From assembly GCF_016595465.1 (NCBI RefSeq), contig NZ_JAENIK010000009.1:310001-374000 (forward strand): a stretch of DNA of 64,000 nucleotides, in the 5' to 3' direction. The notes beneath the pieces are model-generated. The model had not been told where the DNA came from. It worked only from the letters and a program-made list of their open reading frames with translations, and ran no database searches. The translations under genes were made by a program, and so were the position numbers. Position 1 is the stretch's first letter, and every line of letters begins with the position of its first letter. The stretch is from Luteolibacter yonseiensis (lineage in GTDB: Bacteria > Verrucomicrobiota > Verrucomicrobiia > Verrucomicrobiales > Akkermansiaceae). Of this stretch, positions 6,679-62,834 are shown one piece after another.

Positions 6679-7248
6679 TTAGGAAAACAACTTCCGATCC
6701 AGCGATCGATATTGGATCGCTTCCAGGATGTCGTTCGGACGGATGTCGGGAGCGCCGCCGAGATCGGCCAGGGTGCGGGCGACTTTCAGGATGCGGTCGT
6801 GGGCGCGGGCGGAGAAGTTCATCTGCTCCATGGCGTGTTCCAGGTAGCGGTTCGACTCGGCGTCGAGCTTGCAGTGCTGCCGCACCTGGCGGGAACCCAT
6901 CGCGGAGTTGGTGGAGTTGGAGAATTTCCGGAACCGCTCCTGCTGGATCTCCCTCGCCGCCACCACCCGCTGGCGGATGGTTTCGGATTTTTCACCCATG
7001 TTCGAGTCGGACGACAGGTCGCGGAAATCGACAAGCGGCACCTCCACGTGGAGATCGATGCGGTCTAACAACGGTCCGGAAATGCGCTGGCGGTAGTTTT
7101 CGATCTGGCGTGGCGAGCAACGGCACTCCCGTTTGAGGTCGCCATAGTAGCCACAAGGGCAGGGGTTGAGCGCCGAGACGAGGAGGAACCTCGCGGGGAA
7201 GGTGAGGGAACCGGCGGCGCGCGAGATGGTCACATGGCCGTCCTCCAA
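6679..7248 (-). pseudogene. comM: comM (yifB) 3' half, separated by the inserted element
   Basis: This encodes the C-terminal part of a Mg-chelatase-like AAA+ ATPase of the YifB/ComM family, a hexameric helicase that promotes branch migration during natural transformation. The frame carries conserved C-terminal blocks: EDGHVTISRA, LVSALNPCPCGYYGD, the Cys cluster CRCSP, GPLLDRIDLHVEVP with the arginine finger region, and the lid-helix block SARAHDRILKVARTLADL. It begins at the QPLED motif with no start codon of its own. The missing 5' half lies on the same strand at 45353-46318. The two halves fit exactly at QPLE, so excision of the intervening 38 kb would restore the gene. Confidence 0.93.
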
Positions 7249-7273: not shown

Positions 7274-9037
7274 ATGGGTAGAATTCGTGTCATGAACACG
7301 CGAAACCAGAAAAGTAAAAAACAGGAATTACCGGTGGTTGAAGGACCAAAGCGTGCGTATTCCTACATTCGCTTTTCTTCGAAGAAACAGGCAAAAGGGT
7401 CCTCCCTGAGTCGTCAGTTGGAGAAAACACGGAAGTATTGCCGCGAACGTGGGCTGCTTCTTGATGAAAGCATGTCCTATCAGGATTTGGGAGTTTCTGC
7501 GTGGAAGGGTATGAATCTCGACGATCGGAATGGGCTCGGACAACTGGTCGCGGCGTGTCAGGATGGCCTCATTCCACCCGGGTCAGCGATTGTTGTAGAG
7601 GCGATGGACCGGATTTCTCGGCAGCGTCCACGGCGCGTGTCGACGTTGCTCGGTCGATTCCTCGACGAATTTCGTGTGGAGATCCATTTGATTGGTATCG
7701 AGAAGGTCCTCTTGCCGGATGTTCCAACGGCTGCAGAGGAAGGGATGGATCTTATGTATATTGCGATGCTTGCCAGCCGGGCAGCTGAAGAACAGGAGAC
7801 CAAGTCGGACCGGCTCAAGGCTGCCTTTGAGAGAAAACGACGCAAGGTAGCAGATGGTACTAAACTGATGGAAACCAAACCTGGGAAAATGCCCTGGTGG
7901 ATCGTTTATAACGGCAAATCACTTGAATCTCCACCGGACCGGGCGGAGGTGGTTCGATCGATCTATTTATGGACCGCAGATGGCGTCACCGCGCCCGAAA
8001 TTGCCCGCCGGCTGCAGGCGTCTGGAATTCCAACATGGAGACCGGTGACGAAGATCTGGACTTCCGCTAGGGTCCGGGATCTTGTGAGGTCACGGGCACC
8101 CGAGGGTATTCTTTCTGAAACACCCAAGACAGCTGTTAGCGGTCTTACTTACGAAGTTCCGGGTTACTACCCTAAATTGGTAGACGCAGACATTGCTGAG
8201 CGTGCGCGTGCGGCGATGACAGCAAATCGGCGGCAGGCCGGAAGACCCCATGAGATTCGCGCTGAAGGAGAAAGGCCGATCAATATTCTCCGCGGACTGC
8301 TACGGTATGAGGGGCATTGGTGTGCCCATGGAACACGTGCCAACGGAACCGATGGTGCGATGAACGGATATTTCATCGTCTATCTGGAGGAGCTAAAAAA
8401 GACACTCGTATCGATTCCGGCAAGGTTGATCGAGCCGACCTTGCTTGCGGGCCTCGTCGAACTGAAACCCGCTGATCTTGTTCCGCCTCCGGATGAGGTA
8501 GATCCTTATGTGGGCAAACTCGCATCCTTGAAGGAGGAATTGAAGAAGGTTGAAAAGGTGTTGGAGAGCCTCGCCGACAAGGTTGAACAGAATCCCGATA
8601 TCGATACACTGTTGGTCAGGCTCCGCGAGCGGGAAGCTGATCGTAAGCAGCTCAGGGAAGAAATCGGAGAGCTGTCTGTTAAAGTCAAAACGCGACCGTC
8701 CGGGACTGCGCGGGAGACGAAGGAACTGAAATCTTTGATCGATGCAGATATGCGTGAAAATGCAGTGCGTGGACGTATTGCCGAGTTGCTACGGTCTATG
8801 ATCGAACGCATCGATTTTTCTTACAATCCGACAGCTGCAACCGGCGCTGTCAGCCTCTCATTGTTGCAAAAACAGGGGTTATTTATTCCCGATCCCCTGC
8901 CGGCGTCAAAACGGCGTAAGGCACTTTCGATGATCATCCATTTTCGCAGAGGCGGAAGGCGGGCGATCGTAAGGCTAGATCCCGAGAAAATGGCAAAGAT
9001 CGGTCGCCCAGATACCCTTTTCTCCGGTCGCTGCTAA
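7274..9037 (+). CDS. Large serine recombinase (element integrase)
   Basis: This 587-residue protein has a catalytic resolvase domain (residues 27-180) with the nucleophile Ser35 in YIRFSSKKQ and the family arginines in MDRISRQRPRR. A recombinase domain follows (about 195-340, EIARRLQASGIPTWR), then a degenerate zinc-ribbon region (LLRYEGHWCAHG) in which the usual Cys pairs are mostly lost, and a coiled coil (about 415-500). Large serine recombinases integrate and excise elements between short non-identical att sites. The gene starts about 25 bp from attL, the usual position for an element integrase. A second ATG at residue 7 is an alternative start. The protein is slightly larger than typical phage integrases. 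Confidence 0.92.
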   Translation: MGRIRVMNTRNQKSKKQELPVVEGPKRAYSYIRFSSKKQAKGSSLSRQLEKTRKYCRERGLLLDESMSYQDLGVSAWKGMNLDDRNGLGQLVAACQDGLIPPGSAIVVEAMDRISRQRPRRVSTLLGRFLDEFRVEIHLIGIEKVLLPDVPTAAEEGMDLMYIAMLASRAAEEQETKSDRLKAAFERKRRKVADGTKLMETKPGKMPWWIVYNGKSLESPPDRAEVVRSIYLWTADGVTAPEIARRLQASGIPTWRPVTKIWTSARVRDLVRSRAPEGILSETPKTAVSGLTYEVPGYYPKLVDADIAERARAAMTANRRQAGRPHEIRAEGERPINILRGLLRYEGHWCAHGTRANGTDGAMNGYFIVYLEELKKTLVSIPARLIEPTLLAGLVELKPADLVPPPDEVDPYVGKLASLKEELKKVEKVLESLADKVEQNPDIDTLLVRLREREADRKQLREEIGELSVKVKTRPSGTARETKELKSLIDADMRENAVRGRIAELLRSMIERIDFSYNPTAATGAVSLSLLQKQGLFIPDPLPASKRRKALSMIIHFRRGGRRAIVRLDPEKMAKIGRPDTLFSGRC

Positions 9038-9040
9038 CGA

Positions 9041-9979
9041 TCACCAGATCGATGGCTCGGGCCGGGGTGGTTTCAGCGATTGGGGTTCCGGGCTTTTGTC
9101 GGGTTCTTTTCCTTTCCCCGCAAGCAACATAGCTTTAAGCAGCAGTTCCTCTATCGCCCGCATTCCTAGAAATCCATCAGCTGCACGGCGGAGCACACCT
9201 CCAATTTCTTTGTTCCAAGCTGGGATCAATTCTTGGGGGATCTGACGGGCGATGTCCTTGGCGACGTGGGCGTAATCTGCGGGAAGCATGGGAGATAGGA
9301 GGACGATTTCATCCCGGAATCGCTGCCTGAGTTCGGCGTCGATTTCAGCAAGGATTTGTTCCTTGGTTGGAGGTTCTGGCAGAAATAATTCCTTTGAGGA
9401 GTTGAATCCGAGAGTCCGGGCGTTGCCGCGCCAAGCGGATTGCCAAGCGCCACAGCCCATGATCATGACGCGTTCCCGGAGTGTCCGCTCCAGTTCCGCT
9501 TTCTGATCTTTGCCGGAACCCTGGGGAAAGCTTTCAGCCGGAAGTGATTCGATGGGCAGCTTCGTGGCAACTGGCAGCACCCCGTCCAGAAGGTCATGGA
9601 TCTCCAGCCGAACATTTCGAGTCCACTCGCTGGGCGACTGGAGTTTATCAATCTCATCGAGCACAAGAACCCCAGCACCCGGCAGCCGGTCGAGCCAATC
9701 GGCGATCAGTGAGATGGTCCATGGGTCGCCACGTGAGCCAGCGATCATCCACGCCGCGACATTGATGACGAGAGATGGAATTCCAAGTTGTTCTCCAAGG
9801 CGACGTGCGAGATGCGATTTCCCGCTGCCGGACGGTCCGATCAGCAGGCTGTGGGTTCTGGGTAGGACGGACATGCCGGAACGGATTCCTGAAGTGGCGA
9901 TCCTCGCCACCGGGAGGAGTTTTTTGAGCGCGTGTTGTTGCTGAGGTGAAAGGATCATCTTTTCTTTGTATTGAGCCAT
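9041..9979 (-). CDS. AAA+ ATPase of the mobile element
   Basis: This 312-residue protein has a clear P-loop (LLIGPSGSGKSH, about residues 45-56), a Walker B (GVLVLDEIDKL) and a sensor-like MIMGCGAWQ, resembling the ClpX/RuvB-type AAA+ fold. A helical C-terminal lid domain ends in a Pro-rich tail (KPPRPEPSIW). Its partner and substrate are unknown. It converges on the integrase gene (3 bp between stops) and is the last gene of a leftward cluster with the RadC-like gene. It could be a remodelling ATPase acting in replication or maintenance of the element; that is inference only. Confidence 0.75.
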   Translation of the reverse strand: MAQYKEKMILSPQQQHALKKLLPVARIATSGIRSGMSVLPRTHSLLIGPSGSGKSHLARRLGEQLGIPSLVINVAAWMIAGSRGDPWTISLIADWLDRLPGAGVLVLDEIDKLQSPSEWTRNVRLEIHDLLDGVLPVATKLPIESLPAESFPQGSGKDQKAELERTLRERVMIMGCGAWQSAWRGNARTLGFNSSKELFLPEPPTKEQILAEIDAELRQRFRDEIVLLSPMLPADYAHVAKDIARQIPQELIPAWNKEIGGVLRRAADGFLGMRAIEELLLKAMLLAGKGKEPDKSPEPQSLKPPRPEPSIW

Positions 9980-22276: not shown

Positions 22277-22280
22277 CGGA

Positions 22281-22378
22281 ATGAGGAATGAGGAATGAGG
22301 AATGAGGAATGAGGAATGAGGAATGAGGAATGAGGAATGAGGAATGAGGAATGAGGAATGAGGAATGAGGAATGAGGA
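22281..22378. repeat. Heptanucleotide tandem repeat (ATGAGGA)14
   Basis: Fourteen perfect copies of ATGAGGA fill 98 bp directly upstream of the HNH lipoprotein start (on its coding strand, TCCTCAT repeats). The unit is not a multiple of three, so slippage would change the spacing and frame of anything reading through it. The tract separates the HNH gene (-) from the Pycsar-like operon (+). Confidence 0.95.
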
Positions 22379-29243: not shown

Positions 29244-29873
29244 TTACTTGCTGCCGGGAAGCGGTAACCATTGGGGACGTTCCACTACCAGCTCGACAGT
29301 CACCCACCGGCGCTCGCCGGTGGGGTTTGTTTCCATCATCTGGTACGTGCCTGCCGGAAGCATTTGCAGGTGAACCTTGGTGGGCACTCTCCACGAATTT
29401 GATTTCCGGTCGGCGATCGCCTCCTGATGAACGATGTCGGCTATCCTGTCGCTTTGACGGACGATCTTCGCGGTGATACTGGCGGTCTGGTCTTGCTGTG
29501 CCCGGTCAGCGAGTGAATTTTGATACCCCGCCGCACCGAAAACAGTCGCGACAATGATCGCTGTCGTCGCGGCCCACTGCCACCGGGGGGAAGACTCGCG
29601 CTTGCCCCTGATCCCTTGTTTCCCAAATTGTGCAGGTGACACTTTGTCCCTGTTGAGAAAGGAATGGATCTCCGATGTTTGGCGGTATACCCGCAGTTCG
29701 CCCAGCAGCCGCGGCAATCCTAACTGGTGGGAGTGGAGGCTTGATGCATCCAGCTGGGCTCCCACAACCTCCTTATATTCCTCGGGTGTAGCCGCAAGGA
29801 CACGGGTGCTTATCTCGCGAGGGGATAACCCTCTGAGTTCGGCGACGGAAGGAATGGGAGCCAGCTTTTGCAT
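29244..29873 (-). CDS. Single-pass membrane protein next to the ParA-like gene
   Basis: A 209-residue protein: a cytoplasmic N-terminal part (about 1-98), one hydrophobic segment (WAATTAIIVATVFGAAGY, about 100-117) and a C-terminal part with alternating strands (VHLQMLPAGTYQMME, RRWVTVELVVE). It lies 4 bp downstream of the StbB/ParA-like gene in the same leftward unit. The order small DNA-binding protein, ATPase, third protein resembles plasmid stability modules such as StbABC. No sequence match is claimed. Confidence 0.6.
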   Translation of the reverse strand: MQKLAPIPSVAELRGLSPREISTRVLAATPEEYKEVVGAQLDASSLHSHQLGLPRLLGELRVYRQTSEIHSFLNRDKVSPAQFGKQGIRGKRESSPRWQWAATTAIIVATVFGAAGYQNSLADRAQQDQTASITAKIVRQSDRIADIVHQEAIADRKSNSWRVPTKVHLQMLPAGTYQMMETNPTGERRWVTVELVVERPQWLPLPGSK

Positions 29874-29877
29874 CGGA

Positions 29878-30705
29878 TCAGACGGTTTGATCGGTTTTCT
29901 TGGATTTGGCTTTCTCCGAAGGGTCGTCAGGTGGCAGGACCTGCTGGTATGGGGGCGCGAGCAGTTCAGGGGCTACTTTTCGGACAGCTTCCTCCACCTT
30001 CGGGTATGAGTCATTCCAGTAGTCTCCAATCACGTGTAAGCCGGACAAAGCAGGGCCGCCAGCGGCCGCATATTCCGAAATCTCAGCGAACGGGACCGGC
30101 AATTGCTGGCCGATTTCGCGGGCCTCGTCTTCTTCCAGCATCTCCATCTGGAATACGTGATTCGGCTTCAGGTCGGAAAGTGCTTTGTAGAGGTCAATCG
30201 GCTCGGTCTGTTCAGTGGGCTCCGCCCCGAAGTTAACCTGGATCCAACGGTCTGGTTTAATATCCTCGTAGGCTTCGATGGCGCCCCCAAGGACGAGGTT
30301 GTTTTTACGGACCGGAGCAATCCCGATGACGGTGCAATAACGAAGGGCACCCGAACGAAGCAGATTATAAATCCCCTTCGTTTTCCCACCCTTGGCGGGC
30401 AGATCAATGATGATTGGGCGACCTTCATCAATCGCTTTCTGGACAATGAGGGGTAAAACCGCACGAGCCTCCTCGATGGAGTTGATATCCCACGAGAAGA
30501 CCTCCGGGTTTTCCAGATACTTGCCCTTCTCTGTTGGGTGCGGAATCAGGATTTGGTTCAGAAGCCCGGGATTCACATCCAGGGCGATGACCAGCGGTTT
30601 AACCCCGAGCAGGCTGCAGATGTAGTAAAAGAATGCGAGGATGGCGGATTTATACGCTCCTCCCTTCGTGTTCATCGCAATAAATACGATTGGTTTCAGT
30701 TTCAT
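29878..30705 (-). CDS. ParA/StbB-like P-loop ATPase
   Basis: 275 residues from the ATG at 30705 (MKLKPIVFIAMNTKGG). The P-loop TKGGAYKS has the deviant Walker A lysine of the ParA/MinD superfamily, but with Tyr where Gly is usual. A Walker B-like segment is RPIIIDLPAKGG. The C-terminal end is acidic-basic and flexible (SEKAKSKKTD). Likely role: segregation or positioning of the element's extrachromosomal form, or coupling of the relaxosome, as for StbB or MobD. It overlaps the upstream 74-residue gene by 4 bp. The frame upstream of 30705 is the neighbour's shadow. Confidence 0.72.
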   Translation of the reverse strand: MKLKPIVFIAMNTKGGAYKSAILAFFYYICSLLGVKPLVIALDVNPGLLNQILIPHPTEKGKYLENPEVFSWDINSIEEARAVLPLIVQKAIDEGRPIIIDLPAKGGKTKGIYNLLRSGALRYCTVIGIAPVRKNNLVLGGAIEAYEDIKPDRWIQVNFGAEPTEQTEPIDLYKALSDLKPNHVFQMEMLEEDEAREIGQQLPVPFAEISEYAAAGGPALSGLHVIGDYWNDSYPKVEEAVRKVAPELLAPPYQQVLPPDDPSEKAKSKKTDQTV

Positions 30706-30926
30706 AGTATTTGGCGTTTGTTGTTGAATCCCTCGCGCAGGCAATAATTCCTCACACCTTGGCCTGTGACTCTGATCCCGAGATCCTGGGACAGCCGTCG
30801 GGCCATGGCATAATAGGGAATTCGTGCCTCCGCCCAATCCCGCAACCGGGCGTCGAATGCCCTCAGACCGCCCCATTCGAGGCGGGTCGGGTTGGCTTGA
30901 TTGGTTTGTTCGGGTTGTTTCGACAT
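30702..30926 (-). CDS. Small probable DNA-binding partner of the ParA-like ATPase
   Basis: 74 residues from the ATG at 30926 (MSKQPEQTNQ). The basic C-terminal part, YYAMARRLSQDLGI followed by VTGQGVRNYCLREGF, has helix-turn-helix spacing. It overlaps the ATPase gene by 4 bp, as is typical for partition operons, and is divergently placed from a ribbon-helix-helix-like gene. Its operator might be in the 90-bp divergent gap (30927-31017) or the GATTT array further on. Confidence 0.55.
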   Translation of the reverse strand: MSKQPEQTNQANPTRLEWGGLRAFDARLRDWAEARIPYYAMARRLSQDLGIRVTGQGVRNYCLREGFNNKRQIL

Positions 30927-31017: not shown

Positions 31018-31398
31018 ATGAAAGAGCCACAGCCTCACGATAAGCCGGCGAATTCCCGCAATGAACGTCCCGAAACGTCAATGAGGGTGACCCTATCTCT
31101 CGGGAAAGACGCCTATGACCGTCTGGATCGCCTGTCCCGTGCACTTTCAACCTACGTCCCAGGTGGGGTGTCGCGTTCCGCGGTGCTTCGTGGCCTTTTG
31201 GAATTCGCCGAAGAGGCCGCACTTTCCGTTGCTGAGACCAGATTGCTGATGCTTAACGCCTCTATCAACAATCCTGTCGGAATTCCAAGCCCGGACTTTA
31301 AGCCTTCCGCTGACAATCGCCAGCCGCTGGTGGAGGAAGTGAAATTATGGTTCGACCTGAAGGAAAAGATTTTTGCTCAAACCAAATCGGCAAATTAA
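31018..31398 (+). CDS. Ribbon-helix-helix-like DNA-binding protein
   Basis: A 126-residue protein. The segment SMRVTLSLGKDAYDRLDRLS, then VSRSAVLRGLLEFAEEA has the strand-helix-helix pattern of the MetJ/Arc family. The C-terminal half is unassigned. Such proteins act as plasmid partition factors, relaxosome accessory proteins (MobC-like) or autoregulators. It converges on the 279-residue gene, overlapping its stop by 4 bp. Confidence 0.6.
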   Translation: MKEPQPHDKPANSRNERPETSMRVTLSLGKDAYDRLDRLSRALSTYVPGGVSRSAVLRGLLEFAEEAALSVAETRLLMLNASINNPVGIPSPDFKPSADNRQPLVEEVKLWFDLKEKIFAQTKSAN

Positions 31399-32234
31399 TG
31401 CTTCACACGGAATCGATCCAAATTCACCGGGGCCTTGGTCGTGAAATCCGTTTTGATAGAGCCGTCCTCGTTTCGAGGGATGCTGGCCAGAACCTCATCC
31501 GGCGTGCGTTCAGATGTTCCTTGGCGTCGAGGGGCCACGTCAGTTGACGAATCGGATGCAGATTCGCCAGACTTCTTAGCGGTCGGAGCCTTTGACTCAA
31601 CGGGATCCTGCCCGGTAGATGCAGGTCTTGGGTATTCGGCGCGGGCATTCCCACCTCGATCATCCGTTGAAAGCATTGCGCTTACGCTGGGGGAAGCGAA
31701 GGCAGACCGGCCGCCCGTAGCCTCCGACCCAGGGGCAAGTTCTTTTTCGGGTTGGAATCTTAACCCGCTATAAGAAACCGGACGAGGCCGCCAGCCATTC
31801 AGAATCATCTCGTCGGTTGGGTCTCCGTTTTCATCGCGCCACCGTTGCATGGCGAGTTCGTAGTCGGGGCCTTTCGCGCTGCCCCTGCCCAGAGGTGGAA
31901 GATGCAACCACTTCCGGGTTTTGGACAGCAGCGCCTGGGTTTTTTTCAATTTGGGGTCCGCGAGCGGGCCTTTTCCTTGGTCGGGTTTGAACCGGGAACC
32001 GGAGGTGGCACCACCTTCCGCCAGTAGAGCATCGAAGATTTTTAGTTCGTCGAGGTAGTCCCGAAGTTCAACGGTTTTCCGGAACCGCAGAATCGTGTAA
32101 ACACAGAGAGGCCGAATTTTCTCTTCCCAGAGAGTCTCACGAGGATCCTGCCGGGTGGCATCTCGATTCACGAATCCCTGAAATGCGGCCCGGGTGTCGA
32201 ATGTCGTAGGGTCTGGAATAGCTGGGGATTTCAT
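31395..32234 (-). CDS. Hypothetical protein beside the GATTT array
   Basis: A 279-residue protein with an N-terminal helical part (TRAAFQGFVNRDATRQD, then IRPLCVYTILRFRKTVELRDYL in part), a Trp-containing middle (KTRKWLHLPPLG) and a long Ser/Pro/Glu-rich tail. No known domain is recognised. Its start codon lies at the edge of the phased GATTT array (32227 onward), so its promoter is inside the array. That makes it a candidate for autoregulated binding, as is common for centromere-binding partition proteins (inference). Confidence 0.6.
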   Translation of the reverse strand: MKSPAIPDPTTFDTRAAFQGFVNRDATRQDPRETLWEEKIRPLCVYTILRFRKTVELRDYLDELKIFDALLAEGGATSGSRFKPDQGKGPLADPKLKKTQALLSKTRKWLHLPPLGRGSAKGPDYELAMQRWRDENGDPTDEMILNGWRPRPVSYSGLRFQPEKELAPGSEATGGRSAFASPSVSAMLSTDDRGGNARAEYPRPASTGQDPVESKAPTAKKSGESASDSSTDVAPRRQGTSERTPDEVLASIPRNEDGSIKTDFTTKAPVNLDRFRVKH

Positions 32235-32461
32235 GGGATTAGGCCAAGATTTGGAAGGGTTGGCAGGGATTTGCCTGCGATTAGATCGGGAGCACGCCGG
32301 ATTTGAGGTGATTTGATCAAGAATTAACTAGATTTCTTCGCGATTTAAATACGATTTATCATGGATTTACCACGATTTCAAGCGATGTTATCTTGATGCC
32401 AAGGTATTACTTCGAGATTTACTGAGATTTTCAGGATTCTTCGGGGATTATCCTAGGATTT
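32227..32461. repeat. Helically phased GATTT array (candidate centromere or curved DNA)
   Basis: GATT(T/A/C)-type motifs begin at 32227, 32237, 32248, 32268, 32279, 32300, 32310, 32331, 32342, 32353, 32364, 32374, 32416, 32426, 32435, 32446 and 32457, with weaker matches (GAATT, GATG) at 32321, 32384 and 32395. The step is 10 or 11 bp, or 20-21 where one is missing, over about 22 turns (mean about 10.45 bp). Short T-tracts in phase with the helix predict strong intrinsic curvature or a filament-type binding site. Confidence 0.85.
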
Positions 32462-32599
32462 TATCGATCGGCGCATGCCGCCCTCATCAGCCGGGTCGCC
32501 CCCGAGAGGCTGGTTTGGGATAATCGGCAGAAACGGTAGTGATGGCGGTAAAAAATCCGGCACCGTCCGTTATTTTTCATTGATTATTCAATGGGTTAT

Positions 32600-32810
32600 G
32601 GTATCGTCCGGGTGTCCGGACGATACCCGGGTTGGTGTCCACAAAGGACGCCACGGGGGAGCCTTCCGTCAGGAAGGGAGGGCGTCAGCCCCGGGTTCAA
32701 GGGGTGCGCCCCTGCCCTCGGAGAGCAAAAAGGGGCTCGGTGACGCGGTAGCGAAACGAACTATTCAGGAAAAACGCAGTTTTGACTAGGAATAGCGAGC
32801 CCCTTTCTTG
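32600..32810. other. Candidate oriT: hairpin-rich region ahead of the relaxase gene
   Basis: The region has a perfect 11-bp inverted repeat, GTATCGTCCGG and CCGGACGATAC with loop GTGT (32601-32626); then CCTTCC-GTCA-GGAAGG (about 32662-32677); then AGGGG-TGCG-CCCCT (32700-32713); then AAAAGGGGCTCG (32728-32739) paired with CGAGCCCCTTTC (32796-32807) across 56 bp. No gene is seen. Position directly upstream of the candidate relaxase and the density of inverted repeats suggest an origin of transfer; the nick site is not identified. Confidence 0.5.
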
Positions 32811-32863: not shown

Positions 32864-34984
32864 ATGAAACGAAAAGGCCCTGATAAAGGAAGCAAGGTGC
32901 GGGGAAATCCCAATGGTAAAACATTAAGCCCAACATCGAAGACGGTTACGTCCGAAGACATGCTTGAACACATGGGAATAGTGCTGCGCCTGATGAAGGA
33001 CGCAGCATCCACTCAGAGGCATCACGTTTCCAGACTGCGGAAAGAACTGGGGCTCCCTCCAAATGCCGCCCTGCCGGATGCCGTTGGCGACAAAGATGGG
33101 CATTCCAGGGATTATTTCCCGACGGTTCCAGAGATTGATGGCGATACTCTGAAAGATGTGGAGCGGAAAGAGGCGGCGTGTGGGCTGCTGCTGGAAGAAG
33201 GTTCGGTCATCGCAGGTCTCAGAATTTACCGCGCCAAAGCAGGTTCTGGAGAGGACGACGCCTGGTTGGCAAAATCCATTCCGGTTGAGGGAGGCCGGGA
33301 ATGGGTCAACCACAACAAAAAGCTGATTAAAGAGCGAGCCACCTATAGCGAATTGAATCGTCTGATTGTGACCGCTGGCGAGGCAATCGGAGAGCGTAAA
33401 GGCGAGGACGTCGGTAGGCGGAAGGAGAAGATCAGGTATGCCACATCGCCTCTCAAAACAATCACGGCACGGTTGATGCCCCACGAGGCCGAAATCCTCT
33501 TTGGCAGCTTGTCCGGGAACGGACTCGACCGGGCGATGGATTCGCTCAAAAAGGATTTTGAGCATGAAATTGGATGCGAAGTCGCGTCTATGGCGGTTCA
33601 CCGGATGAGGAACAACGACCTTCACGTTCATGTCCAGTACACGATGGTGCTGGAGGTTGAGATGCCCAAGAAGGCGTATGGTCCTCTGAAGAATGAGTGG
33701 GAAAAGAAAGCGGTCGATTGCGCAAGGCAGTCCTTGTTTGCTGAGGGCAAACGCGACTTCCCGGCGGCAGTGGGAAAACGAAAAAAGCTGCTGATCGAGC
33801 AGGGCGTGATTCCGCCTCCTCCGAAAAGGACTCGATTTGAAAAGCAGAAAGGGAACCGGAATCTCAAGACGAATTCCCTTTTGGGTTACTCCTTCAAATT
33901 CAAGCTGAATATGCTTCGAGCGGCCCAAGCTTTTCCGGAGGAAACAGAGCTGGCTGAAAAAATCGCGCAACGGGGTGACAAAAAGGGCGATTTCAGGGAT
34001 AAGTTCCTCTTCCGGACCGATGAGGAGATTCAGGCTGAAAGACTCGATTATTGGCTGGAACGACGGTGGCGGGAATCGGTGGCGGCTGAGGTCCCGGAAG
34101 AAATTCGGGCGCGGCTTCCGGCCGCCGCACTGGAGGAGGCAAGAAAATATGCGATCCACGGCACGACGCAGGTAGAAGCTTTCCACCTCGAACTTCACCG
34201 GGATGCGACGGAGAAGCAGTTAGTGGATTCTGAGACGCAGTTGACCCGAATATTGGATGAGGCTGCTGATCTGGAAATCCGGATGGCGAATCTGGCGGCG
34301 GAATTACAGAGACAAAATCTAGCGTTGGACCAACGCGTTATCGAGGTGGAGGGTCGCGAGAATTCCGTTTTGCAAAGCGAGAACGACGCTGAGTTGCGGG
34401 GAGTCCGCGCTGCATTTGGTAAGCTGTTTCCGGAGTCCGCTCCGGTGGCGAATACCCCTGAGGGTATCATCGAGGAAATAAAGATCGGGATCGAGGACGC
34501 GGCCCAGGCCGCTGTGGAGAATCAGATGCTGGAGGCACTTGAGCCTCCGAGTTTGGAAGCGGTAGCTGAAAAAATGGGCTTCGGCCCGGAACCGAACGCT
34601 GAGGGACTATTTCGCCTGCCTGAGGGAGGCCTTCACCCCGAACGGGTGCTCATCACCGACCGGACATTTGTTCGATCGTTTCCCACGCTGGGAATGGATT
34701 CCCCGCAGAAGGGTGAAGGAGTAGTGGAGCTGCTAGCGACAGAAGAGACGAGAGAATCGATCAAACGCTCAAGATCTCAACTACTCGCCCAGTTACTGAA
34801 ATGGTTCCCAAACAAAGCGATTGCGCTCGCCAACGAGGCTCTGGGGGACCGCGCCGGCAAGTTTCTCAGAGAGCTATTGCATCTGGACGCGCCGAAGACT
34901 CCGGCGAAGAAGGCCGGCTTGGCAAAAAAGGCCAAGGATGATTCTCCAGACGGGAATGATCCTTCGTCTCATGAGGGCCAGTAA
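32864..34984 (+). CDS. Candidate relaxase / mobilisation protein
   Basis: 706 residues from the ATG at 32864, with AAGG upstream. The middle has a histidine motif VHRMRNNDLHVHVQYTM (His254-x-His256) preceded by FEHEIGCEVASMA, resembling the HUH/three-His metal site of MOB_V/Pre-type relaxases. A long coiled coil follows (about 440-520), then a C-terminal Lys-rich tail. RSF1010 MobA/RepB is similar in length, but I see no clear primase domain. Expected role: nicking at oriT and piloting single-stranded DNA during mobilisation. The palindrome GCGTTGGACCAACGC (34322) lies in its coiled-coil codons. It is the least certain backbone assignment. Confidence 0.55.
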   Translation: MKRKGPDKGSKVRGNPNGKTLSPTSKTVTSEDMLEHMGIVLRLMKDAASTQRHHVSRLRKELGLPPNAALPDAVGDKDGHSRDYFPTVPEIDGDTLKDVERKEAACGLLLEEGSVIAGLRIYRAKAGSGEDDAWLAKSIPVEGGREWVNHNKKLIKERATYSELNRLIVTAGEAIGERKGEDVGRRKEKIRYATSPLKTITARLMPHEAEILFGSLSGNGLDRAMDSLKKDFEHEIGCEVASMAVHRMRNNDLHVHVQYTMVLEVEMPKKAYGPLKNEWEKKAVDCARQSLFAEGKRDFPAAVGKRKKLLIEQGVIPPPPKRTRFEKQKGNRNLKTNSLLGYSFKFKLNMLRAAQAFPEETELAEKIAQRGDKKGDFRDKFLFRTDEEIQAERLDYWLERRWRESVAAEVPEEIRARLPAAALEEARKYAIHGTTQVEAFHLELHRDATEKQLVDSETQLTRILDEAADLEIRMANLAAELQRQNLALDQRVIEVEGRENSVLQSENDAELRGVRAAFGKLFPESAPVANTPEGIIEEIKIGIEDAAQAAVENQMLEALEPPSLEAVAEKMGFGPEPNAEGLFRLPEGGLHPERVLITDRTFVRSFPTLGMDSPQKGEGVVELLATEETRESIKRSRSQLLAQLLKWFPNKAIALANEALGDRAGKFLRELLHLDAPKTPAKKAGLAKKAKDDSPDGNDPSSHEGQ
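34322..34336. repeat. Palindrome GCGTTGGACCAACGC, copy 3
   Basis: An exact copy of the 15-mer at 16316, here inside the coiled-coil region of the relaxase-like gene (codons for ALDQR). Confidence 0.75.
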
Positions 34985-36440: not shown

Positions 36441-36795
36441 AGCACCGGCGTCCGCACGGGGATGATGGCTCAGCTCGCCGTGGCGCGGATGCGTTCAGGG
36501 GTGATCTTCTCCCCGCAGGGGGGTGGCCTTGGCGGCTCTGTGCCCTTGTTGTTGTCTTGCTCTTGGTCCCGGAGGGCGGTAGCCTGACCGGGCAGAGGCG
36601 CTAGCCTCGGTCCCGTTTTTGGGGCGGGCGATGGACCTGCCGCCTCAAGCGGCTGGGCCTGTCGGCCCGCCTTGGCAATATTGGAATTGTTGACAATATT
36701 GGAGCGAAGAGGAAAAGGGGCCCCATTTGTTACACAAGTATATAACTGTGTGTTGGTTGTGAATCATGAAAAATTCGTTAAATTTGTGCCGATAC

Positions 36796-36872
36796 GCCGA
36801 ACCTTTCGGGGCGATAGGCCGAATCTTTCGGGCCGATAGACCGAACTATTCGGGGCGATAAGCCGAACTATC
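36796..36872. repeat. 22-bp iterons, three and a half copies
   Basis: Direct repeats of the form GCCGAAC-TTTCGG-GCGATAG at 36796, 36818 and 36840, with a half copy at 36862 that overlaps the repC stop codon. RSF1010 oriV likewise has three and a half iterons (20 bp) bound by RepC, which supports a replication role. Confidence 0.85.
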
Positions 36873-37764
36873 TAACGGACGGTGGAAGGAGTGATTTGGG
36901 GGATTTGGGACGAAAAACGGTTGCCTTGGCGGAGTCGCCCCTGCCAACCAGTGAGACCTTCCATCCGGCAGGAGCAAAGGATTTCAGGGAGGCGGTAAGC
37001 GCTCTCCATTGATCGGGGGTGGCTGTCTGATCGTCGGAAAGGGCGAAGACACTCTGGGCAAGAACTGTAACCCGGATGGTCCGCTCCTGGCCCTCGCGGA
37101 GAAGTAGTACGAATCTTGAGTAGAGGATTTGCGAGATTTGACTATTCAGCGATCGCCTCTCCGCTATCCACTGGACGGCCATACCGGCGTTGGTGTTGCC
37201 GGCGATCACGGCGGCGGACAGGCGGTTGAGGAGGATCGTGATGTTGCTGTCCCGCTCGCCGGGACCGAGGAGTTTTCGGTGGATGGCAATGAGCCTTGAG
37301 AACTGACTCCCCTCCGGATTGAGATAATGAATGTTGGTGTTTTCAAGACGCCTGAAGCATTCGTTGAGGCGATCATAGCTTCGCCCGTTGGTGCCCCATC
37401 CGAGAAGGGTCAAGATCTCGTGACGTGTCGCCACGGCGGCGAGGATGTCATCATCCATTCGGACGCCCTCTTCTTTGAGGATGCTGCGGATCTTGGATCC
37501 TCCTCGTACGGTTTTGCGGCGATCAGCGGGAGCCATGATGGCAAGGAGCGCCATGAGGACGGATTCGTCATCGGCGTCGAGCTCCCAGGGACAGATGATC
37601 TCGAGCCGGTAGGGGTTTGTCGAACCAGGTGGGCTGTTGTGGATGATTTCACGACGTGCCCGCCTGTTGGCGGGCATTTTAGGTAGCGGCCTGAACAACG
37701 AGACGGCCGCGAGGTGACCGTGGTGTATCGCGAACCGATATAGTTCTTTGGTATCCGCGGTCAT
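36868..37764 (-). CDS. repC: IncQ-like replication initiator RepC
   Basis: A 298-residue winged-helix-type initiator. Features resembling IncQ RepC are NPYRLEIICPWELDADDESVLMAL (in part), a central ALLAIMAP, LTLLGWGTNGRSYDRL with the helix-turn-helix-like NECFRRLENTNI, and a second domain with RLIAIHRKLLG and LSQSVFAL-type segments. It overlaps the repA-like gene start by 4 bp and the iterons follow its stop, as in IncQ plasmids. Its expected role is to bind the iterons and open the AT-rich region. I rate the family fit as good, supported by synteny more than by catalytic motifs. Confidence 0.75.
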   Translation of the reverse strand: MTADTKELYRFAIHHGHLAAVSLFRPLPKMPANRRARREIIHNSPPGSTNPYRLEIICPWELDADDESVLMALLAIMAPADRRKTVRGGSKIRSILKEEGVRMDDDILAAVATRHEILTLLGWGTNGRSYDRLNECFRRLENTNIHYLNPEGSQFSRLIAIHRKLLGPGERDSNITILLNRLSAAVIAGNTNAGMAVQWIAERRSLNSQISQILYSRFVLLLREGQERTIRVTVLAQSVFALSDDQTATPDQWRALTASLKSFAPAGWKVSLVGRGDSAKATVFRPKSPKSLLPPSVR

Positions 37765-38699
37765 GACCGGGCCGTGTCGGTGGAGGGATCATCCAAGACA
37801 CCTCCGATCCGGGGCCGGTTGGCAGCGGGTCTTGTTGCCGATTGGGCAGGTGTAGTGATTGGGACCGGTACACCCGTGCTGTTCTTCCGAAACCACTGCG
37901 GGTCGTGCATCATTCCATGATTGATTTTGGTCTGCTCGAGGATGACGTAATGGCTGCGCTGCTCCTCAGAGATTCCATGTTTGGCCGCTTTTTGTTGCGA
38001 CGGCTTTCTGACCGACCACGCAGTGCGGGCGGCGAAGGAAATAGCCACCGATCCGCGTTCCGTCCCGGCGGCGTCAAGGTCATCCCGGGCGGCTTGCATG
38101 CCCGCTTTGTTTGTATGGTGGATGAGTAGCCCGCCAGCTCCCCAATCACTCAGCTTGTCTTCGATGCCCACGAAAAATTCCGTCATCTGAATCGCGTCAT
38201 TTTCATTGGTACCCGGAGGCAGAAATCTGGATAGCGTGTCAAAAACCACGAGGACGGGAGGAATTGCCTTACCATTGGCGTCTTCGGGGAGGATAATCCC
38301 GTAATCCATCGTGGGCTCCAGAAACCGGGCATTACAGACCACCAGGTTGTGACAGTAGGCTTCGAAGGCGGCTCCAGCGGTGAGCTGCAAATGTTGGCAG
38401 ATAGAATACAACCGAGCTTCAAGGTCGATGATGTCATCCTCCCGTGAGATGAATACCACCGGTCGCCCTCCTGGCACCGCTGGCCCCCAGAGGCCCCCGA
38501 GCACCGGCAGGCCTGCGGCGATCTGCACACAAGCAACGAGTGTCATGAACGATTTGGATGCTCCTCCAACCGCGGTGATCACCCCGAGTCTGCCCGGATA
38601 TATGCCGGGCAAAATATAAGGACGTTCCGGTTGGGCAACGAGAGCGGCGAGACGGTTCACGGCTCTTTCGGTTAGTTTTCCTGGAGGGATTGATGGCAT
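37761..38699 (-). CDS. repA: IncQ-like replicative helicase RepA
   Basis: 312 residues from the ATG at 38699 (MPSIPPGKLTERAV). P-loop GGASKS at residues 45-50 (VITAVGGASKSFMT), Walker B VLVVFDTLSRFLPPGTNEND (about 145-164), a sensor HHTNKAG and an arginine-rich end match the RSF1010 RepA/AAA_25 hexameric helicase family. Upstream in-frame residues come from the leader and are not protein-like. The gene precedes repC with a 4-bp overlap. A conserved hairpin leader (38753-38769) and the terminator of the upstream gene lie ahead of it. Confidence 0.85.
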   Translation of the reverse strand: MPSIPPGKLTERAVNRLAALVAQPERPYILPGIYPGRLGVITAVGGASKSFMTLVACVQIAAGLPVLGGLWGPAVPGGRPVVFISREDDIIDLEARLYSICQHLQLTAGAAFEAYCHNLVVCNARFLEPTMDYGIILPEDANGKAIPPVLVVFDTLSRFLPPGTNENDAIQMTEFFVGIEDKLSDWGAGGLLIHHTNKAGMQAARDDLDAAGTERGSVAISFAARTAWSVRKPSQQKAAKHGISEEQRSHYVILEQTKINHGMMHDPQWFRKNSTGVPVPITTPAQSATRPAANRPRIGGVLDDPSTDTARS

Positions 38700-38752
38700 G
38701 GTGTGTTGTGTAGTTTCGGGAACACGATCAGAGGCGAAAGAAGGGCGCGGGC

Positions 38753-38769
38753 CGGGAAACCGGGCCGGG
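38753..38769 (-). promoter_or_regulatory. Recurrent leader hairpin, copy ahead of repA
   Basis: GGCCGG-GAAA-CCGGGCC followed by GGGGCAGCGCG (plus-strand reading). The same motif occurs ahead of three other leftward genes (39687, 41625, 43512), each time after a terminator and 30-70 nt before a start codon. Confidence 0.6.
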
Positions 38770-38803
38770 GCAGCGCGTGCCAACCGCAGGAAAAAACAAA
38801 AAA

Positions 38804-38864: not shown

Positions 38865-39656
38865 TCAGGCCCCGGCTTTGATTGTTTTCTCCGGTTGATC
38901 GATAGCCAGGTCGACACTGTTCATCCCGAACCACAGTGGTTCCTCGACTGCCGGGTCGTTTGACTTGATACTGCTGACAATTCCCACCAGTTCGAGTTCA
39001 CTCGGCGGGAGATACGGGGCTTCTGCCTGCTCAGGATGAGTGACCGTCCAGATACGACGCGCAGTATCCTCAATAAGCGAACCCCCGCGCTCCGGTGGAT
39101 TCGAGCGGACAAGAAGTAGGGCAGCTCCATGCCGACTGGCCTCGGCACACACGGTGCGCAGGAAGTCACCTACTGCAGAAGGGTCGTTGAAATCGAGGTT
39201 CGGGACGAAGTGAGCCACATCGTCGATGATGATCAGGCGAGGTGGGTTCTCGGGGTCGACGGGCAACGCTTCAAGTCCGCCCGCCATGAAGGCGTTGGCG
39301 TCACAGATGATGAGATTATCCTTGAGCAGCTGCGCTTCATTTGACCCCTCCTGAATATCTAATTGGCCAAGGAGACCAACTAATCGGCGTGTGCGCGAGG
39401 ATGGAGTATCCTTCAGAGTCAAATAAACTACCGATTGTCCGCCCACACAATCGAGCCCAAACATGCCTTTCAGCGGTGTCCACCCTATCGCAATTTCCAC
39501 CGCAGCTCGAAGCATGAGGTGCGAGGTGATGTAGGCCGGACCGTCGAGTATTCCAAACTCGCCGGCTTGAATTCCGGAAATCACGTCCTCATCCACGAAG
39601 AGGGAGTCGTTGAGGGTGGCTGGAGTGTTGGGGATATTTGTGGTTGGTGGTGTCAT
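38865..39656 (-). CDS. RepA-like ATPase paralogue lacking the P-loop
   Basis: A 263-residue protein aligned along its length with the neighbouring RepA: FGILDGPAYITSHLM replaces VITAVGGASKSFMT; MFGLDCVGGQSVVYLTLKD matches LWGPAVPGGRPVVFISRED; ICDANAFMAGGLE and RLIIIDDVAHFVP match the later strands. The Walker A Gly-Lys-Ser is absent, so ATP hydrolysis is unlikely, while Walker B (IIIDDVAHF) is partly kept. It may be a regulatory or structural subunit of the helicase ring. It has its own terminator and leader, so it is expressed separately. Confidence 0.7.
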   Translation of the reverse strand: MTPPTTNIPNTPATLNDSLFVDEDVISGIQAGEFGILDGPAYITSHLMLRAAVEIAIGWTPLKGMFGLDCVGGQSVVYLTLKDTPSSRTRRLVGLLGQLDIQEGSNEAQLLKDNLIICDANAFMAGGLEALPVDPENPPRLIIIDDVAHFVPNLDFNDPSAVGDFLRTVCAEASRHGAALLLVRSNPPERGGSLIEDTARRIWTVTHPEQAEAPYLPPSELELVGIVSSIKSNDPAVEEPLWFGMNSVDLAIDQPEKTIKAGA

Positions 39657-45328: not shown

Positions 45329-46318
45329 TTAAATTCCACAGCCATTCTCCAAGGGCTGGCGCAGCACTTCGAGCGTCTGCCTGCGGAACTCGGGCAGCTC
45401 GTCGAGGAAAAGCACGCCGTGGTGCGCCAGCGAGACCTCGCCGGGGCCGGGGTTCTGTCCGCCACCCAGCAGGCCCGCGTCCGAGATGGTGTGGTGCGGC
45501 GCGCGGAAGGGGCGGGTTGTTATAAATGATTTCTTGGAATCGAGCATGCCCGTCACCGAGTGGATCTTGGTGGTCTCGATGGCGTCGTCCTCCGTCATGT
45601 CCGGCATGATGGTGGGGATGCGCTTGGCGAGCATGGATTTCCCGGTGCCCGGCGGCCCGACCATGATGATGTTGTGTCCTCCGGCGGCGGCGACCTCCAG
45701 CGCCCGCTTGACGTGGTGCTGGCCCTTCACCTCGTCGAAATCCACCTCATAGCTGCGGTGGGAGTTGAAGAACGCCCGGCGGTCCAGTTGGTAGGGCGGG
45801 ATGATGACGTCGCCATTGAGGAAATCCCACGCCTGCTTGAGGTTGCGGATCGGGAAGACCTGGATGCCGTCGATGACGGCGGCCTCCGGGGCGTTCGCCT
45901 CCGGCACCAGCAGCCTCGCCCGCCCGCGCTTCTTCGCCTCCAGCGCGATGGCGAGCACCCCCTTCACCGGACGCACCGCGCCGTCGAGGCCCAGCTCGCC
46001 GACGACACAGCAGTCCTCGGCGTCGAAGGGCTTGGTGCCGCTCGCCGCGACCATGGCGAGGGCGATGGGCAGATCGAACGACGGCCCCTCCTTTTTCAAG
46101 TCCGCCGGAGCGAGGTTCACCGTTTTCACCCCGTCATCCAGAGCCAGCGCGGATGCGCCGATGGCGGAGATCACCCGCTGCGACGACTCACGCACCGCGG
46201 CATCCGGCAGTCCGACGATGATGACTACCGGCTTCTCCGCCCCACGGGCGTTGACCTCGACTTCGACTTCCAGGGCATCGACACCGCGCAACGCGGCTGA
46301 AAATAAGCGGGTAATCAT
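45329..46318 (-). pseudogene. comM: comM (yifB) 5' half
   Basis: The frame starts at [16 protein letters not shown] (ATG at 46318) and has the ComM N-terminal domain ([18 protein letters not shown], in part; [20 protein letters not shown], in part), Walker [16 protein letters not shown] and Walker [12 protein letters not shown]. Native sequence ends at QPLE (about 45353); eight further codons (ending NGCGI) come from the element before a stop at 45329. The protein would lack sensor, arginine-finger and lid regions and is expected to be inactive. The 3' half is at 6679-7248. Confidence 0.95.
45347..45358. other. attR: right junction of the mobile element
   Basis: CTCCAA-G-GGCTG matches attL with one mismatch. 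Immediately to the right comM coding sequence resumes on the minus strand (EVLRQPLE). To the left, CAGCCATT completes the dyad that pairs with AATGGCTG at attL. Confidence 0.85.
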
Positions 46319-62528: not shown

Positions 62529-62549
62529 GCCGGCGAACCAGGTCCTCCC

Positions 62550-62753
62550 GTCAGAGGTTCCGTCAGAGGTTCCATCAGAGGTTCCATCAGAGGTTCCATC
62601 AGAGGTTCCATCAGAGGTTCCGTCAGAGGTTCCGTCAGAGGTTCCGTCAGAGGTTCCGTCAGAGGTTCCGTCAGAGGTTCCGTCAGAGGTTCCGTCAGAG
62701 GTTCCGTCAGAGGTTTCGTCAGAGGTTCCATCAGAGGTTCCATCAGAGGTTCC
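62550..62753. repeat. 12-bp tandem repeat, 17 copies
   Basis: (G/A)TCAGAGGTTCC repeated 17 times without interruption, varying only at the first base and once inside (GGTTTC). It lies between convergent genes right after the MITE-like element. Frames through it encode simple tetrapeptide repeats but lack coding signals, so I treat it as a non-coding minisatellite. Confidence 0.95.
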
Positions 62754-62834
62754 GTCAGCATCTCATGCCGCGCGTCGATCTCCATCGGCTGAATGGATGC
62801 GAAAGCCTGGCTCGCGGCCCGCAGGCTTCCGCTT

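What the first reader, a model, noticed from the sequence alone, without database searches (positions are those of the whole stretch)
32227..32461. GATTT array in perfect helical phase over about 22 turns
About 20 GATT-type motifs recur every 10-11 bp between a partition-like module and the candidate oriT. Chance phasing at this precision is very unlikely. It could be a centromere recognised by the ribbon-helix-helix protein or the 279-aa protein, or an intrinsically curved nucleoprotein scaffold for replication or transfer.
Basis: seen in the sequence. Interest (0 to 1): 0.75.

Follow-up and report, generated by a model that had tools for sequence, protein, structure and literature searches.

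The report
Helically phased array beside transfer origin
A run of about 20 short GATT-type words, one per turn of the DNA helix, is real and not due to chance; it sits between a ParA-type gene module and mobilisation genes of an integrated plasmid-like element, and related elements carry equally phased arrays made of different words, which suggests a protein-coated centromere or transfer-control site like the one on plasmid R388.

Summary
Confirmed: 32227-32470 holds 24 consecutive slots of about 10.4 bp, 13 of them exact GATTT. The 17 GATT words are in phase (resultant 15.95/17, period 10.45; 0/500 shuffles; strongest 10-11 bp signal in the window). The array lies inside a roughly 38-kb element that splits comM and carries a large serine recombinase and IncQ-like RepA/RepC genes with iterons. 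It overlaps the start of the 279-aa gene (geneA) and ends 20 bp before a 19-bp motif identical in a second Akkermansiaceae element. Of four homologous geneA loci, three have significant 10.5-11 bp arrays at the same place, with different words (TGTC/CACT, AATCGG, CAATTATG); one is negative. The same test picks out the known StbA sites of R388 and the TraK region of R751. Gene order matches stbABC/traKLM. Best reading: a centromere-like, oriT-adjacent array coated by geneA's product with the ParA, setting stability against transfer. The RHH protein is less likely to be the general binder: two homologous loci show no RHH gene there. Strong curvature is predicted here but not at all loci. GeneA has no detected homology to StbA/TraK, so this is a functional analogy, not family membership. 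Binding and function are untested.

The parts
32227..32470 (+). array of 24 GATTT-type units at ~10.4 bp
31395..32234 (-). geneA: 279-aa protein, low-confidence helical N-terminal domain plus long disordered tail; proposed array-binding protein
   Evidence: homologs in L005, L031, L033, L034 are always the gene next to the array position; model pLDDT 50
31018..31398 (+). ribbon-helix-helix protein (126 aa), just under the Pfam RHH_1 cut-off
   Evidence: positional homolog in L005; none found at this place in L031/L034
30702..30926 (-). 74-aa protein; weak, non-significant alignment to the R388 StbA N-terminal domain over 44 columns
29878..30705 (-). ParA-like ATPase (275 aa), Walker A KGGAYKS
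   Evidence: homologous to L005 and, via it, L034 ParA
29244..29873 (-). geneC: 209-aa protein after ParA with one moderately hydrophobic stretch
32491..32509 (+). CCGGGTCGCCCCCGAGAGG, identical in L005; part of the candidate oriT
32600..32627 (.). 12/12 inverted repeat, 4-bp loop, not terminator-like; candidate oriT hairpin
32864..34984 (+). candidate relaxase (706 aa, DLHVHVQ motif), 36% identical to a large protein next to the L031 module; no Pfam family
36790..36868 (.). 22-bp iterons (3.6 copies), candidate oriV, distinct from the array
36868..37764 (-). RepC/RPA-like replication initiator
   Evidence: below curated cut-off; the L034 counterpart passes the RepC cut-off
37761..38783 (-). 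RepA-like AAA_25 ATPase
7274..9037 (+). large serine recombinase
6679..6999 (-). 3' comM fragment (Mg_chelatase_C); reading extends to about 7250
45329..46318 (-). 5' comM fragment (ChlI + Mg_chelatase)

Best explanation
The array is the cis site of an oriT-adjacent partition/transfer-control module of an integrated, IncQ-like mobilizable element. Copies of the 279-aa protein (geneA) bind one per helical turn on the same face of the DNA, through a short core (GATT here), and coat the roughly 24-unit array as an extended nucleoprotein complex. Because the first unit overlaps the geneA start, this coating would also autoregulate geneA. The ParA-like ATPase acts on the coated array, with the following membrane-type protein, to position the excised, replicating element and to set when it is maintained versus mobilised, as StbA/StbB do on plasmid R388. 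Shown: the array, its phase, its place, and conserved phasing with changed words at three of four homologous loci. Inferred: who binds, and the function.
For: Phase far beyond shuffles. Homologous geneA loci in G356, G354 and G605 have a significant 10.5-11 bp array exactly upstream of geneA, on the mob side: L005 5.00 @10.65 (0/300), L033 4.94 @10.90 (0/300), L034 3.46 @10.50 (0/300). Scanned blind, that interval is top-ranked in L034, top two in L005 at 240 bp, and top in L033 at 130 bp. The words differ, so phase rather than sequence is conserved. The same test finds the StbA-bound stbDRs of R388 (4.78 @10.75, 0/200) and the traJ-traK region of R751 (3.92 @10.60, 0/200) as their plasmids' best 130-bp windows. 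R388 StbA binds two sets of five 9-bp repeats spaced by 2 bp upstream of stbA beside oriT, and StbB is ParA-like (PMC3098194). ParA has the KGGXXK[T/S] motif described there for the RP4/pTF-FC2 group. Gene C has a membrane-type segment in L005 and L031, as in StbC and TraM. A 19-bp motif next to the array is identical in G356, and its 17-bp core occurs once in each of only two of 387 order genomes. The element has rep genes and iterons and is inserted in comM.
Against: No binding data. GeneA shows no detectable homology to StbA or TraK and its structure model is low-confidence with no fold match. L031 has geneA, a P-loop gene and a related candidate relaxase but no significant array (111/300; 129/200). 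R46, which has stbABC, is also negative in the test. In the window an RHH gene and a 74-aa gene lie between geneA and ParA and could be the binders. The 706-aa protein is not a confirmed relaxase and the nic site is unknown.
Confidence: 0.6

Rival explanations
1. A type Ib-like centromere bound by the ribbon-helix-helix protein 31018-31398 (as ParG on parH or omega on parS), with geneA as a separate factor.
For: An RHH gene lies between ParA and geneA in the window and in L005. RHH proteins coat tetramer boxes or heptads (PMC7308502; PMC9499535), and ParR contacts 10-bp repeats (PMC5016525).
Against: No RHH gene was found at this place in L034 or L031, although L034 has a clear array. The RHH gene is divergently oriented rather than in an operon with ParA. 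A small RHH gene elsewhere could have been missed.
Confidence: 0.2
2. Mainly a DNA-structure element: intrinsically curved DNA that folds the oriT region or a promoter, with no dedicated array-binding protein.
For: A wedge model predicts path/end-to-end 3.6 against 1.17 +/- 0.095 in shuffles (0/150); GATTT is among the most curving words in this geometry (5 of 400 random-word arrays equal or better). The wedge parameters were recalled, not looked up.
Against: The L034 array is phased but not predicted to be curved (1.14, 30/150); the R388 and R751 sites, known to be protein-bound, are not significantly curved either.
Confidence: 0.12
3. A replication-origin or regulatory iteron array (Rep protein or host factor binding).
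For: The element carries RepC/RepA-like genes, and a phase near 11 bp is also seen in the iterons.
Against: Separate 22-bp iterons lie beside the repC-like gene (36790-36868), 4.3 kb away. In L034 the second-best phased window abuts its repC-like gene, while the array stays beside geneA.
Confidence: 0.06

Closest known systems
R388 stbABC operon with stbDRs
   Same: oriT-adjacent array of short direct repeats on an 11-bp spacing upstream of the first gene; ParA-like second gene; third gene with a hydrophobic segment; the same Fourier test detects it
   Different: about 24 degenerate units in one block instead of 2 x 5 9-mers; geneA has no detectable similarity to StbA; extra RHH and 74-aa genes; unlike relaxase; integrated element of Verrucomicrobiota
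RP4/R751 traKLM and pTF-FC2 mobCDE
   Same: ParA-like gene with KGGXXK[T/S]; site-binding protein beside oriT; pTF-FC2 is IncQ-type (background knowledge), as are the rep genes here
   Different: no detectable homology of geneA to R751 TraK
TP228 parFGH and pSM19035 delta/omega partition systems
   Same: ParA plus an array of very short boxes coated by a small DNA-binding protein
   Different: spacing about 8 bp (background knowledge) or 7 bp rather than a full helical turn; binder is RHH, which is not constant here
R1/pB171 parC with ParR
   Same: direct repeats of 10-11 bp, one per helical turn
   Different: motor is actin-like ParM, not ParA; binder RHH

Membership tests
StbABC/TraKLM/MobCDE module | direct repeats phased at about 11 bp upstream of the first gene | tested here: met
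StbABC/TraKLM/MobCDE module | ParA-like second protein with KGGXXK[T/S] or SGXXGK[T/S] | tested here: met
   KGGAYKS in window, KGGPGKS in L005, KGGASKS in L034; L031 is diverged
StbABC/TraKLM/MobCDE module | first protein homologous to StbA/TraK | tested here: not met
   hhalign prob 0.4% and 0.05%; the 74-aa protein only 3%
StbABC/TraKLM/MobCDE module | three adjacent genes in one operon | tested here: inconclusive
   order array position-A-ParA-C holds in window, L005, L031, L034, but extra genes (RHH +, 74 aa) interrupt it in the window and L005 and there is a gap in L031
StbABC/TraKLM/MobCDE module | adjacent to oriT | tested here: inconclusive
   conserved 19-mer, hairpin and candidate relaxase gene adjoin; nic site not known
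StbABC/TraKLM/MobCDE module | first protein binds the repeats; stability and transfer phenotypes | not testable with these tools
   needs EMSA and mutants
Type Ib ParA/RHH partition (parFGH, delta-omega) | RHH centromere-binding protein encoded with ParA at every locus | tested here: not met
   not found at this place in L031 and L034
IncQ-type replicon | RepC initiator, RepA helicase and 20-22-bp iterons | tested here: met
   the window RepC-like hit is below the curated cut-off, the L034 hit passes

The most novel reading that the evidence does not exclude
A previously undescribed family of oriT-adjacent ParA modules in Verrucomicrobiota, with a new DNA-binding protein family (geneA), in which helical phase rather than sequence of the centromere-like array is conserved between elements, while the recognised word and the neighbouring relaxase-like gene are exchanged.
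Probability: 0.4. Interest if true: 0.65.

Novelty: new variant of a known kind. Interest (0 to 1): 0.55.

Why it matters
It gives a simple, word-independent signature (10.5-bp Fourier power beside a ParA/mob junction) that also recovers the experimentally known R388 and R751 sites, and so a way to find partition/transfer-control sites whose sequences cannot be aligned. It extends the stb/traKLM plan to integrated IncQ-like elements of Verrucomicrobiota and offers a natural series of arrays with different words at a constant phase for testing how a centromere and its binding protein co-evolve.

Tried and rejected
Candidate relaxase and ParA versus PLSDB by tblastn: no match. Candidate relaxase versus 289 phylum genomes: only itself. 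17-mer in IMG/VR: two chance hits inside coding sequence. 19-mer in GTDB contigs: 11 hits, of which only L014 (the same MAG as G356) has the module. Relaxase profile in IMG/VR: nothing. GeneA profile across 388 phylum genomes: nothing convincing outside the family. Short geneA-domain proteins in G568 (L032, L035) are chromosomal genes beside TonB-receptor-like genes; no phased array was seen upstream of L032. L052 (shares a C-terminal stretch with the candidate relaxase) has no module. GeneA structure and Foldseek: uninformative; candidate relaxase model: useless. Extra ParA profile hits in five genomes at E of about 1e-4 cover only the Walker A region and were not followed. A simple sigma-70-type promoter scan of the interval found nothing.

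Full report
Observation. Between 32220 and 32470 there are 17 GATT words (13 GATTT), all on the + strand, with a resultant of 15.95/17 at a period of 10.45 bp; 500 dinucleotide shuffles gave at most 9.6 and 3000 random placements of 17 words at most 13.3. A slot model finds 24 consecutive units from 32227 to 32466. In an unbiased scan of the 64 kb for 10-11.2 bp Fourier power the array ranks first (10.2); the runner-up (4.4) is the 22-bp iteron block at 36.7-36.9 kb. The array is unique in the genome.

Setting. The array lies in an element of roughly 38 kb that splits comM: the 3' part is at 6.7-7.2 kb and the 5' part at 45.3-46.3 kb, with a large serine recombinase at 7274-9037. The G356 relative also lies beside a comM 3' fragment. 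The element carries RepC-like and AAA_25 RepA-like genes and iterons. Order around the array: gene C (29244-29873, -), ParA (29878-30705, -), 74 aa (30702-30926, -), RHH (31018-31398, +), geneA (31395-32234, -), array, 19-bp motif, 12-bp inverted repeat, candidate relaxase (32864-34984, +).

Relatives. GeneA homologs beside mob-type genes were found in four genomes of the family: G356 (L005; the same record is in GTDB as an Akkermansiaceae MAG), G344 (L031), G354 (L033, contig ends after geneA) and G605 (L034). ParA is homologous in window, L005 and L034; L031 has a P-loop protein in the ParA position with no detectable homology. Three of the four have significant 10.5-11 bp periodicity upstream of geneA on the mob side: L005 5.00 @10.65 (0/300 shuffles), L033 4.94 @10.90 (0/300), L034 3.46 @10.50 (0/300). 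L031 is negative (1.67, 111/300). The repeated words differ: TGTC/CACT in L005; AATCGG (complement of CCGATT, so the window's core in the other orientation) in L033; CAATTATG in L034. In blind scans of each locus the array interval ranked first in L034, first and second in L005 at 240 bp, and first in L033 at 130 bp. The candidate relaxases of window and L031 are related, whereas those of L005, L033 and L034 show no detectable similarity to them or each other, so the array-geneA-ParA module appears to travel with different mobilisation genes. The relaxase assignment itself rests on position and an HxH-type motif, not on a family hit.

Conserved neighbour. CCGGGTCGCCCCCGAGAGG directly after the array is identical in L005. 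Its 17-bp core occurs once each in G000 and G356 and in no other of 387 genomes of the order. L034 has a split version (GGTCGC...CCGAGAG) after its array.

Yardsticks. The same test on plasmids with experimentally studied sites: R388 trwA-stbA 4.78 @10.75 (0/200), R751 traJ-traK 3.92 @10.60 (0/200), R46 not significant. In R388 and R751 those sites are the best 130-bp windows of the plasmid. In R388 StbA binds two sets of five 9-bp repeats spaced by two bases upstream of stbA next to oriT, is needed for stability and restrains transfer; StbB is a ParA-like ATPase needed for transfer (PMC3098194). StbB-like proteins of the RP4/pTF-FC2 group have KGGXXK[T/S], as here (KGGAYKS).

Which protein. 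GeneA is the gene next to the array position in every locus. An RHH gene is present between geneA and ParA only in the window and L005. GeneA has a predicted helical N-terminal region and a long disordered tail, at low confidence, and no detectable relation to StbA, TraK or any solved structure. The 74-aa protein aligns weakly with the StbA N-terminal domain (prob 3%), a lead only. Hence the claim is 'works like stb/traKLM', not 'is a member'.

Curvature. A wedge model (parameters recalled from memory) predicts very strong curvature for this array (3.6 vs 1.17, 0/150), in the top about 1% of random words in the same geometry, but not for L034 (30/150), and not significantly for R388 and R751. 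Curvature may help here but is unlikely to be the conserved feature.

Verdict. Observation confirmed; interpretation partly supported. It is a new variant of a known kind, with a concrete word-independent signature and a testable binder. The main gaps are the absence of any binding data, the unproven relaxase/oriT, one negative homolog (L031) and the small number of loci (five in all).

Noticed in passing
window 22278-22378: 14.4 exact copies of the heptamer GGAATGA next to two small minus-strand ORFs; perfect heptad array of unknown role.
   Followed up: no
window 7.2-45.3 kb: comM is split by a large-serine-recombinase element; G356 (L005) has a comM 3' fragment beside its element too, with the junction at a slightly different codon, so comM looks like a hotspot in this genus.
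   Followed up: partly
window 36790-36868: 22-bp iterons (3.6 copies, CGATAGGCCGAACCTTTCGGGG) abutting the repC-like gene: candidate oriV of an IncQ-like replicon.
   Followed up: partly
window 38865-39656: A second, more diverged AAA_25 RepA-like gene beside the first, possibly a duplicated helicase gene.
   Followed up: no
L032 and L035 (G568): The geneA N-terminal domain also occurs as short stand-alone chromosomal proteins (about 115-135 aa) beside TonB-receptor-like genes.
   Followed up: partly
L031 (reverse complement 9091-9660): Repeated non-coding blocks between geneA and the ParA-position gene, with recurring peptides in several frames; may stand in for the phased array in that element.
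   Followed up: no
window 62548-62758: 17.6 copies of a 12-bp repeat inside a coding sequence (PLTE repeats).
   Followed up: no
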